A DNA stretch of 64,000 nucleotides from positions 1 through 64,000 of the forward strand of contig JABFSH010000008.1 in assembly GCA_013140705.1 (NCBI GenBank), in the 5' to 3' direction. The notes beneath the pieces are model-generated. The model was not told the DNA's origin. It worked only from the letters and a program-made list of their open reading frames with translations, and searched no databases. The position numbers and the translations under genes were made by a program. Below are positions 28,014-30,032 of this stretch, in pieces. This DNA is from Methylococcaceae bacterium (GTDB taxonomy: Bacteria > Pseudomonadota > Gammaproteobacteria > Methylococcales > Methylomonadaceae). Position 1 is the first letter of the stretch. The number at the start of each line of letters is the position of its first letter.

Positions 28014-28871
28014 TCAGGCCTCAAAAACAACAGCAGCTTTCAATTTTTTCATCGCATTTTGTTCCAGCTGTCTGATTCGTTCCGCTGAAACATTGTAGCG
28101 TTCGGCCAGTTCATGAAGCGTGGCCTTTTTATCAGACAGCCAGCGGCTGGAAAGAATATCCAGGCTCCGTTCATCCAGTTCTGACAGGGCTTCCGTCAAT
28201 AAATCCTGTCCATGCCCCTCCCAGTCGGCATTTTCTAGCAATAACGCCGGATCGGCACCATGTTGCTGCAGATAATTGACCGGCGCAACAAAGCTGTCGT
28301 CAAGCGATTCATCGGCCGGCATATCGAATGACATGTCCTGATTGCCCAAGCGTTTTTCCATCTCATAAACATCGCTCAGCTCAACATTCAGATCCTTAGC
28401 GATGGCCATCGCTTCATCATTGGTTAACCAGCCTATGTCCTGTTTGGATTTTCGCAGATTAAAAAACAGCTTTCTTTGGGCTTTTGTAGTGGCGACTTTT
28501 ACGATGCCCCAGTTCTTGATGACGTACTCATGGATCTCCGCTTTGATCCAGTGGACGGCAAATGAGACCAGTCGAACGCCAACATCCGGATCGAAACGTT
28601 TGACGGCTTTCATCAAGCCGACATTACCTTCCTGAATGATATCCGGCATTGACAAGCCATAACCGCTGTAGCCTCTGGCAACATGTACGACAAAACGCAG
28701 ATTCGTCATGACCAATTCTCTAGCTGCTTCCAAGTCACCATGATCTCTGAGTCTTAACGCCAAATCGCGTTCCTGGTCAGATGTCAACTTAGGCATTTGC
28801 CTAACAACATTCAAATACGCATCAAATGTTCCAACTGATAAATTAATGGGTAAAGCTAAAGCACTACTCAC
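28014..28871 (-). CDS. rpoH: RNA polymerase heat-shock sigma factor (sigma-32)
   Basis: This sigma-70-family factor has 285 residues. Region 2 includes [39 protein letters not shown] and the RpoH-box-type sequence [10 protein letters not shown]. Region 4 is [20 protein letters not shown]. It directs transcription of heat-shock genes. I chose the GTG at 28871, because AGGAGG lies 6 bases upstream and the protein then begins like other RpoH proteins ([11 protein letters not shown]). An exact CIRCE operator lies 33 bases before the start, so HrcA probably controls it. A terminator follows the gene. Confidence 0.92.
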
Positions 28872-28903
28872 GATAGTCCTCCTGTTAAAACGATGGAGCA
28901 ATT

Positions 28904-28930
28904 TTAGCACTCTCTTCCAAAGAGTGCTAA
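28904..28930. promoter_or_regulatory. CIRCE element (HrcA operator) upstream of rpoH
   Basis: A perfect TTAGCACTC-N9-GAGTGCTAA inverted repeat matches the CIRCE consensus in every arm position and in spacer length. HrcA binds CIRCE and represses chaperone genes at normal temperature. Here it is in the 96-base spacer between galE and rpoH, where TTAGCA-N18-TAAAAT on the minus strand could be the -35 and -10. Repression of rpoH by HrcA would follow. HrcA itself is not in the window. Confidence 0.85.
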
Positions 28931-28967
28931 TATTTTCTCTGACAATTTTTTCGCTGAGTGAGAGCCA

Positions 28968-30017
28968 TCAAACATAACCTTCCGGATTCTTCTTTTGCCA
29001 ATTCCAGGCATCTGACACCATATCATCGAGATTTTTTTCGACTTTCCAGTCCAATTCCATTATCGCACGCTCCGGATTTGCAAAACATTCGGCCAGATCA
29101 CCGACCCGCCTGGGCGCAATCTTGTAATTGACTTTTTTACCCGTCACTCTTTCAAAGGTTTCTATGATTTCGAGCACGCTGCAGCCTCTGCCGGCACCCA
29201 GATTATAAGCTCGGCAAGCGCCTGCGTTAAAACGTTCACCCTGAAGTGCAGCGATAGCTTTGATATGCCCCTTAACCAGATCTACTACATGAATGTAATC
29301 CCTGATACCTGTGCCATCACGCGTAGGATAATCATCACCAAACACCGATAATTGCGCGAGTTTGCCAATGGCCACCTGCGAAACATAAGGCATGAGATTA
29401 TTGGGAATACCGTTCGGATCTTCGCCAATCAGACCACTTTCATGAGCTCCAATCGGATTAAAATAGCGCAGCAAGGCGATTTTCCAGGGATTCTGGACTT
29501 TCGAGATGGTATCAGCCGCTGACAAATCCCGTAAAATGTCTTCTATCATGGCTTTTGAGCGGCCATAGGGGTTAATGGGGCCCAATGGAAAATCTTCGGT
29601 ATACTGCACATGAACGGACTCACCATAGACGGTCGCCGATGAACTGAAAACCAGTTGCTTGACATCGGCATCACGCATAGCCTCAACGAGAACCAGTGTT
29701 CCGTAGACATTGTTATGATAGTAATTTAATGGTTGCTCACAGGATTCGCCGACGGCTTTTAAACCAGCAAAATGCATGACTGTCGAGATGGCCTCACGAC
29801 TAAAAATATCCGTCAAAGCCTGTTTGTCACGAATATCTGCCTGATAAAACTGCACTGGCTTACCGGTAATCTGCTCTACCCGGGATAACGATTCCGCTTT
29901 GCTATTACTTAAATTGTCAACGACGACAACCCGGTAATTGGCCTGCAATAATTCAGTGCAGGCATGACTGCCAATGTAGCCAGCTCCACCTGTCACCAAC
30001 ACATTTCTAACAATCAT
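28968..30017 (-). CDS. galE: UDP-glucose 4-epimerase
   Basis: This extended SDR enzyme has 349 residues. It has the NAD motif TGGAGYIG, the active-site Ser in SSSATVYGE and YxxxK in YGRSK, then RYFNPIGAHESGLIGEDP typical of GalE. It interconverts UDP-glucose and UDP-galactose for envelope polysaccharides. The ATG at 30017 has GAGG upstream. It sits 15 bases after ybeX, in the place where lnt (apolipoprotein N-acyltransferase) usually follows in gammaproteobacteria. Confidence 0.93.
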   Translation of the reverse strand: MIVRNVLVTGGAGYIGSHACTELLQANYRVVVVDNLSNSKAESLSRVEQITGKPVQFYQADIRDKQALTDIFSREAISTVMHFAGLKAVGESCEQPLNYYHNNVYGTLVLVEAMRDADVKQLVFSSSATVYGESVHVQYTEDFPLGPINPYGRSKAMIEDILRDLSAADTISKVQNPWKIALLRYFNPIGAHESGLIGEDPNGIPNNLMPYVSQVAIGKLAQLSVFGDDYPTRDGTGIRDYIHVVDLVKGHIKAIAALQGERFNAGACRAYNLGAGRGCSVLEIIETFERVTGKKVNYKIAPRRVGDLAECFANPERAIMELDWKVEKNLDDMVSDAWNWQKKNPEGYV

Positions 30018-30032
30018 AGACAACGTCCTCGG

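What the first reader, a model, noticed from the sequence alone, without database searches (positions are those of the whole stretch)
28904..28930. Exact CIRCE operator upstream of rpoH
A perfect TTAGCACTC-N9-GAGTGCTAA sits 33 bases before the rpoH start. CIRCE is usually found ahead of groESL or hrcA-grpE-dnaKJ. Placing the heat-shock sigma factor under HrcA would make one heat-shock system control the other, unlike E. coli, where RpoH is controlled mainly by RNA thermosensing and proteolysis. I cannot tell whether this has already been reported for related genomes.
Basis: partly seen in the sequence, partly recalled or inferred. Interest (0 to 1): 0.7.

Follow-up and report, generated by a model that had tools for sequence, protein, structure and literature searches.

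The report
HrcA operator inside rpoH promoter
In this methane-oxidising bacterium the gene for the main heat-shock switch, rpoH, carries a repressor-binding site built into its own promoter, and the same arrangement recurs across most of the related families checked, so two heat-shock systems usually treated as alternatives look wired together.

Summary
In detail: an exact CIRCE operator lies at 28904-28930, 32 bases upstream of the rpoH start codon (GTG, 28871-28869, minus strand). The genome encodes HrcA and has three CIRCE sites: rpoH (exact), groESL and hrcA.

It is not a local oddity. 80 of 80 Methylococcales rpoH loci carry CIRCE there, as do 105 of 114 rpoH loci from CIRCE-bearing genomes of other families of the class. 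Most lineages without HrcA have lost or decayed the site.

The geometry is special. hrcA sites lie downstream of a TTGACA-type promoter; the rpoH CIRCE is interlocked with the core promoter. Its right arm plus AAT forms an extended -10 (TGCTAAAAT). In about two thirds of the class sample its left arm also fits the -10 of a sigmaE promoter (GGAACTT-N16-TCNNA), as in E. coli rpoH P3. The window itself lacks that -35.

Best reading: HrcA represses rpoH by occluding RNA polymerase. Binding and regulation were not tested. CIRCE upstream of rpoH was predicted for Geobacter sulfurreducens in 2004; I found no report of the class-wide or sigmaE-interlocked form, but a key 2003 paper could not be read.

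The parts
28904..28930 (-). CIRCE operator (exact 9-9-9 inverted repeat), predicted HrcA site
   Evidence: conserved in 80 of 80 relatives
28901..28909 (-). Predicted extended -10 element TGCTAAAAT, formed by the right CIRCE arm plus the AAT that follows (hexamer 28906-28901)
   Evidence: Bases +2 and +3 after CIRCE are A and T in all 81 distinct family sequences; class-wide T at +3 in 95 of 105, against 8 of 27 at hrcA CIRCE sites
28931..28937 (-). A-rich element directly upstream of CIRCE (family consensus AAAATTA, here GAAAATA), possible UP-element proximal subsite
   Evidence: function inferred
28894..28894 (-). Predicted transcription start (A), giving a 5' UTR of about 23 nt
   Evidence: Inferred from -10 spacing; A in 91% of 81 sequences
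28878..28883 (-). Shine-Dalgarno AGGAGG
   Evidence: sequence
28014..28871 (-). rpoH (sigma-32), GTG start, 285 codons plus stop
28968..30023 (-). galE, upstream neighbour on the same strand (most relatives have ftsX here)

Best explanation
The site is a working HrcA operator that represses rpoH transcription. Shown: an exact CIRCE, a full-length hrcA in the same genome, conservation at rpoH across the class, co-loss with hrcA, and conserved bases that make the right CIRCE arm part of an extended -10. Inferred: at normal temperature HrcA, helped by GroE, binds CIRCE from about -36 to -10 and excludes RNA polymerase. On heat or misfolding HrcA loses activity (thermal inactivation or titration of GroE) and rpoH is derepressed together with the other two CIRCE targets, groESL and the hrcA operon. 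RpoH then drives the rest of the response, and rising GroE restores HrcA. In many other families of the class the left arm also fits the -10 of a sigmaE promoter, so HrcA would there gate the relay from envelope stress (sigmaE) to RpoH. In the window's family this sigmaE -35 is mostly gone and an A-rich element stands at the upstream edge.
For: Exact site; HrcA present. 80 of 80 Methylococcales loci with at most 3 mismatches (27 exact), none of 1600 shuffles; 29 of 30 further loci from 21 genera of other families of the order with at most 2; 105 of 114 class loci with at most 3, 57 exact. In the order, 22 of 23 CIRCE-less genomes also lack HrcA (p=2e-22); in the class, HrcA is in 3 of 65 CIRCE-less genomes tested (of 88) and 15 of 15 CIRCE-bearing ones tested. 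In HrcA-less genus g22 CIRCE is gone in 12 of 12 loci while TGNTARAAT stays in 11 of 12. TTGACA lies within 45 bases upstream of CIRCE in 24 of 27 hrcA loci of the order but 0 of 80 rpoH loci; T at +3 after CIRCE: rpoH 95 of 105, hrcA 8 of 27, p=5e-10. GGAACTT at the expected place in 67 of 105 class loci, background 3.3%; where present, A at CIRCE position 12 in 61 of 69, else 13 of 36, p=5e-8. HrcA heat-sensing and GroE stimulation in Campylobacter: PMC8533110, passages.
Against: No binding, transcription start or expression data for this organism. Seven HrcA-less genomes of the order keep an rpoH CIRCE with 0-2 mismatches, perhaps from assembly gaps; four more HrcA-less, CIRCE-bearing genomes were not read. 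Three CIRCE-less class genomes have HrcA, and four genomes that have HrcA lack CIRCE at their only rpoH hit (G322, G276, G287, G263). Nine of 114 class loci lack the site. In Xylella under nitrogen starvation both hrcA (4-fold) and rpoH (2-fold) rose (PMC3224663, passage), not what simple repression predicts, if that rpoH has the site (not checked). For the sigmaE part, CIRCE position 10 shows no dependence on the -35 (46 of 69 against 25 of 36).
Confidence: 0.82

Rival explanations
1. HrcA binds but matters little: rpoH is mainly controlled by other promoters, read-through from galE, translation and proteolysis as in E. coli.
For: galE ends only 37 bases upstream of CIRCE on the same strand; E. 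coli regulates RpoH mostly after transcription (general knowledge).
Against: The site is kept across very distant families and is mostly lost with HrcA, so it is under selection. The start region of the window's rpoH mRNA is not more paired than shuffles (0.58 against 0.64 +- 0.13; 20 relatives 0.55 against 0.60; mononucleotide shuffles), so there is no sign of an RNA thermometer, though this test is weak.
Confidence: 0.12
2. CIRCE acts in the transcript as a hairpin that affects rpoH mRNA stability or translation.
For: It is a perfect inverted repeat close to the start codon; transcripts starting further upstream would contain it. In the window's family the loop ends are often T and A (0.84 and 0.81), which would lengthen the stem by a pair.
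Against: The conserved extended -10 overlaps the right arm, so the main predicted transcript starts after CIRCE. Class-wide the loop varies freely except at positions 10-12, beside the proposed sigmaE -10.
Confidence: 0.04
3. HrcA at this site works mainly as a roadblock to transcription coming from ftsX or galE.
For: The upstream gene is on the same strand in 73 of 75 relatives read.
Against: The site is interlocked with promoter elements rather than lying downstream of one, and the promoter bases are conserved with it.
Confidence: 0.05
4. Chance or relic palindrome without function.
For: None found.
Against: Expected 0.01 matches with up to 3 mismatches in the window; conservation in 80 of 80 relatives at similar spacing.
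Confidence: 0.01

Closest known systems
HrcA/CIRCE regulon (groESL, hrcA operon)
   Same: Same operator consensus and cognate repressor; the genome also has the two classical targets.
   Different: The target is rpoH, and the operator sits in the core promoter instead of downstream of a TTGACA-type promoter.
CIRCE upstream of rpoH in Geobacter sulfurreducens (Rodionov et al. 2004, PMC545781; passages and table rows seen)
   Same: Exact CIRCE upstream of rpoH, listed at -51 relative to the start of translation; a prediction.
   Different: One delta-proteobacterium, no promoter overlap described in the passages seen; here a feature spread over many families of another class.
Escherichia coli rpoH P3, a sigmaE-dependent promoter (reporter use seen in passages of PMC2215328)
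   Same: GAACTT-N16-TCTGA upstream of rpoH with ftsX before it; many HrcA-bearing families have GGAACTT-N16-TCNNA at the same spacing.
   Different: E. coli is not among the control genomes in which HrcA rings and has no CIRCE there (best 8 mismatches). The window's own promoter lacks the sigmaE -35 (0-1 of 7 at the expected place).

Membership tests
CIRCE operator / HrcA regulon | TTAGCACTC-N9-GAGTGCTAA inverted repeat | tested here: met
   exact
CIRCE operator / HrcA regulon | Lies in the promoter or leader region of a heat-shock gene | tested here: met
   32 bases before rpoH
CIRCE operator / HrcA regulon | HrcA encoded in the same genome | tested here: met
   PF01628 E=2.6e-65; TIGR00331 327 bits, cut-off 197
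CIRCE operator / HrcA regulon | CIRCE presence follows HrcA presence in relatives | tested here: met
   strong association, not absolute; exceptions listed in the report
CIRCE operator / HrcA regulon | HrcA binds and represses, heat relieves | not testable with these tools
   needs EMSA/footprint and an hrcA mutant
sigmaE-dependent rpoH promoter (P3 type) | GGAACTT 16 bases upstream of a TCNNA -10 (consensus recalled) | tested here: not met
   window scores 0-1 of 7 at the expected place; 12 of 81 in its family, 67 of 105 in the class reach 5 of 7
Extended -10 sigma-70 promoter | TGN-TATAAT-like with the A and T positions conserved | tested here: met
   TGCTAAAAT; A and T invariant in 81 family sequences; activity not tested

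The most novel reading that the evidence does not exclude
An ancestral control device of the class (Gammaproteobacteria, judging from the names): one 27-base HrcA operator whose left arm is the -10 of a sigmaE promoter and whose right arm is the extended -10 of a housekeeping promoter of rpoH. HrcA would thereby gate both the housekeeping supply and the envelope-stress input to RpoH. Lineages such as E. coli kept the sigmaE promoter after losing HrcA and the operator; the window's family kept operator and extended -10 but mostly gave up the sigmaE input.
Probability: 0.5. Interest if true: 0.75.

Novelty: new variant of a known kind. Interest (0 to 1): 0.62.

Why it matters
HrcA repression and RpoH activation are usually presented as two separate ways to run a heat-shock response, with E. 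coli as the RpoH model. If HrcA controls rpoH itself in most HrcA-bearing families of the class, the two form one cascade, and the E. coli scheme is what remains after HrcA was lost. It also makes a testable claim about how cytoplasmic and envelope stress are combined at one promoter, and gives a natural series of HrcA losses in which to watch a regulatory site decay.

Tried and rejected
RNA thermometer in the window's rpoH leader: the start region is no more paired than simple shuffles, so it was dropped; the test is weak. A -10 at ordinary spacing behind TTGTCA (just upstream of CIRCE) was looked for by eye and not found. The idea that the site is a Methylococcales speciality was rejected by the class sample. 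Control of an upstream gene was rejected because galE ends upstream of the site and reads the same way. Permina and Gelfand 2003 was not held. The loci L113 and L114 were left out of the rpoH count because their hits (166 and 156 bits) fell far below the family cut-off (323); the partial hits of G168 and G283, also below it, were kept.

Full report
OBSERVATION. The window has one CIRCE match with up to three mismatches, exact, at 28904-28930; shuffles expect 0.01. It lies between galE (28968-30023, minus; TIGR01179) and rpoH (minus; TIGR02392 394.9 bits). The rpoH start is GTG at 28871-28869 behind AGGAGG, so 32 bases separate operator and start codon. The own genome (4.28 Mb, 82 contigs, 99.97% complete) has three CIRCE sites with up to three mismatches: rpoH (0), groESL (1) and hrcA (2), and one HrcA. 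GroES and HrcA were confirmed by family; GroEL and GrpE beside them were recognised by eye, and dnaKJ was not looked for.

CONSERVATION IN THE ORDER. The best 80 of 375 relatives of RpoH, all with Methylococcales titles, all have CIRCE upstream of rpoH with at most three mismatches: 27 exact, 46 one, 6 two, 1 three. CIRCE ends 27-36 bases before the aligned start of the protein in 79 and 130 in one (L066). None of 1600 mononucleotide shuffles of these regions reached three. Of 30 further rpoH loci from 21 genera in the other families of the order, 29 have at most two mismatches and one (G026) four.

LINK TO HrcA. In 251 genomes of the order, 228 have CIRCE with at most two mismatches and 218 have HrcA (20 of the 33 without it are listed there, the other 13 I identified by elimination). 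Of the 23 without CIRCE, 22 also lack HrcA (the exception, G014, has a split HrcA hit); 11 HrcA-less genomes keep a CIRCE (p=2e-22; relatedness not corrected for). I read rpoH upstream regions in 28 of 30 genomes lacking CIRCE and/or HrcA; two (G065, G014) gave no true rpoH hit. Twenty of the 28 have four or more mismatches. All 12 of genus g22 have lost CIRCE, yet 11 of 12 keep TGNTARAAT near the same place (not G146). Of six HrcA-less f7 genomes, four show remnants with 4-6 mismatches at the usual position, G013 has seven and G056 none by ungapped scoring. G020 and G069 have six. Eight of 28 still have at most three mismatches: G183, which falls in the CIRCE-less group with three, and seven HrcA-less genomes (G206, G213, G118, G137, G196, G160, G123) with 0-2. 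Some of these seven may be assembly gaps. Four more HrcA-less, CIRCE-bearing genomes (G219, G229, G046, G111) were not read.

CLASS AND BEYOND. In the class sample 281 of 369 genomes have CIRCE. I took the first-listed genome of each other family of the class where it had CIRCE (121 genomes) and obtained 114 rpoH loci from 113; 8 gave no hit at E <= 1e-60. 105 of 114 carry CIRCE with at most three mismatches (57 exact, 35 one, 9 two, 4 three); none of 740 shuffles of the first 74 did. Misses: G322, G276, G287 and G363 (right arm only), G263, the second copy in G282, G400, G397, G371. Selecting genomes with any CIRCE makes this rate conditional. Of 65 CIRCE-less class genomes tested (of 88) 3 have HrcA (G346, G384, G508); of 15 CIRCE-bearing ones tested, 15 have it, five of them chosen because an rpoH copy lacks CIRCE. 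Twelve rpoH loci of class genomes drawn at phylum level have no CIRCE; seven of the 12 genomes are CIRCE-less, five were not tested for it. Other classes of the phylum: all 80 listed rpoH loci were read; 9 have at most three mismatches, all in one family, f193 (9 of its 20 loci); G616 has four.

PROMOTER ANATOMY. In 81 distinct family sequences the bases +2 and +3 after CIRCE are invariably A and T, making TGCTARAAT, an extended -10 formed with the right arm. Class-wide T at +3 is 95 of 105 and A at +2 is 81 of 105. At hrcA CIRCE sites of the order (27 of 30 loci have one with at most three mismatches) T at +3 is 8 of 27 (p=5e-10), and TTGACA stands within 45 bases upstream in 24 of 27, against 0 of 80 rpoH loci. 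The own groESL site shows the hrcA-type layout by eye. With this -10, CIRCE spans about -36 to -10 and the predicted start is A at 28894, about 23 nt before the start codon. Directly upstream the family has AAAATTA (59 of 81 exact; window GAAAATA), which would fall at the proximal UP-element position (inference).

SIGMA-E INTERLOCK. The class logo shows GGAACTT at -15 to -9 before CIRCE, 16 bases from CIRCE positions 8-12 (TCNNA). At least 5 of 7 matches at the expected place (+-1): 67 of 105 class loci, 22 of 29 in other families of the order, 12 of 81 in the window's family; mean background at other offsets 3.3, 3.7 and 4.6%, the highest single offset in the window's family 13.6%, so there only the 10 of 81 with 6 or more matches (background 0.2%) stand out. 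CIRCE position 12, free in the operator, is A in 61 of 69 sites with the -35 (offsets +-3) and 13 of 36 without (p=5e-8). Position 10 shows no such dependence (46 of 69 against 25 of 36, p=0.83) and position 11 was not tested. E. coli MG1655 has TGAACTT-N16-TCTGA upstream of rpoH and no CIRCE (best 8 mismatches); that its P3 is sigmaE-dependent is seen in passages of PMC2215328. The sigmaE consensus itself is recalled.

NEIGHBOURHOOD. In 72 of 75 relatives with a readable upstream gene that gene is ftsX-like, as in E. coli. In the window it is galE, and no ftsX was found in the 64 kb, yet the operator-promoter is intact: rpoH and its control region behave as one unit.

MECHANISM. HrcA as heat sensor with DNA binding enhanced by GroE is taken from passages of PMC8533110 on Campylobacter. 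The step from operator to repression is inferred.

LITERATURE. CIRCE upstream of rpoH in Geobacter sulfurreducens is in the text and Table 8 of PMC545781 (passages). Full-text searches for CIRCE+HrcA+rpoH (10 papers), HrcA+rpoH (46, 40 listed), HrcA+rpoH+RpoE+promoter (8), two of CIRCE/sigma32/gamma-proteobacteria (83, 25 listed), HrcA+sigma 32 (18), HrcA+rpoH+Geobacter (2), HrcA+RegPrecise (27, 20 listed), Permina+Gelfand+HrcA (2) and two of HrcA/Methylococcus/methanotroph (655, 15 listed) showed no title on a CIRCE-rpoH link in Gammaproteobacteria; I opened passages of only some of these papers. Permina and Gelfand 2003 on beta-, gamma- and epsilon-proteobacteria is cited but not held and may contain part of this. 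The RegPrecise database itself was not consulted.

Noticed in passing
window 28968-30023: galE stands where most relatives have ftsX upstream of rpoH; ftsX-like in 72 of 75 relatives read.
   Followed up: partly
window 28931-28937 and loci L005-L084: Methylococcaceae show a conserved AAAATTA directly before the rpoH CIRCE, and mostly lack the sigmaE -35 of other families.
   Followed up: partly
L087-L092, L094, L095, L097, L102, L103, L112: One genus-level lineage (g22) has no detectable HrcA and no CIRCE but keeps the extended -10 at rpoH in 11 of 12 loci.
   Followed up: yes
L276, L278, L358, L360, L362, L364, L367, L368, L372: A family of another class (f193, unnamed) also carries CIRCE at rpoH in 9 of its 20 loci read, without GGAACTT in the 20-25 bases printed.
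   Followed up: partly
L003:1692-2327 (+): A LexA-like gene (recognised by eye, not tested) is divergent from hrcA across the hrcA CIRCE.
   Followed up: no
L181 and L183 (G282): A genome with two rpoH copies, only one of them with CIRCE.
   Followed up: no
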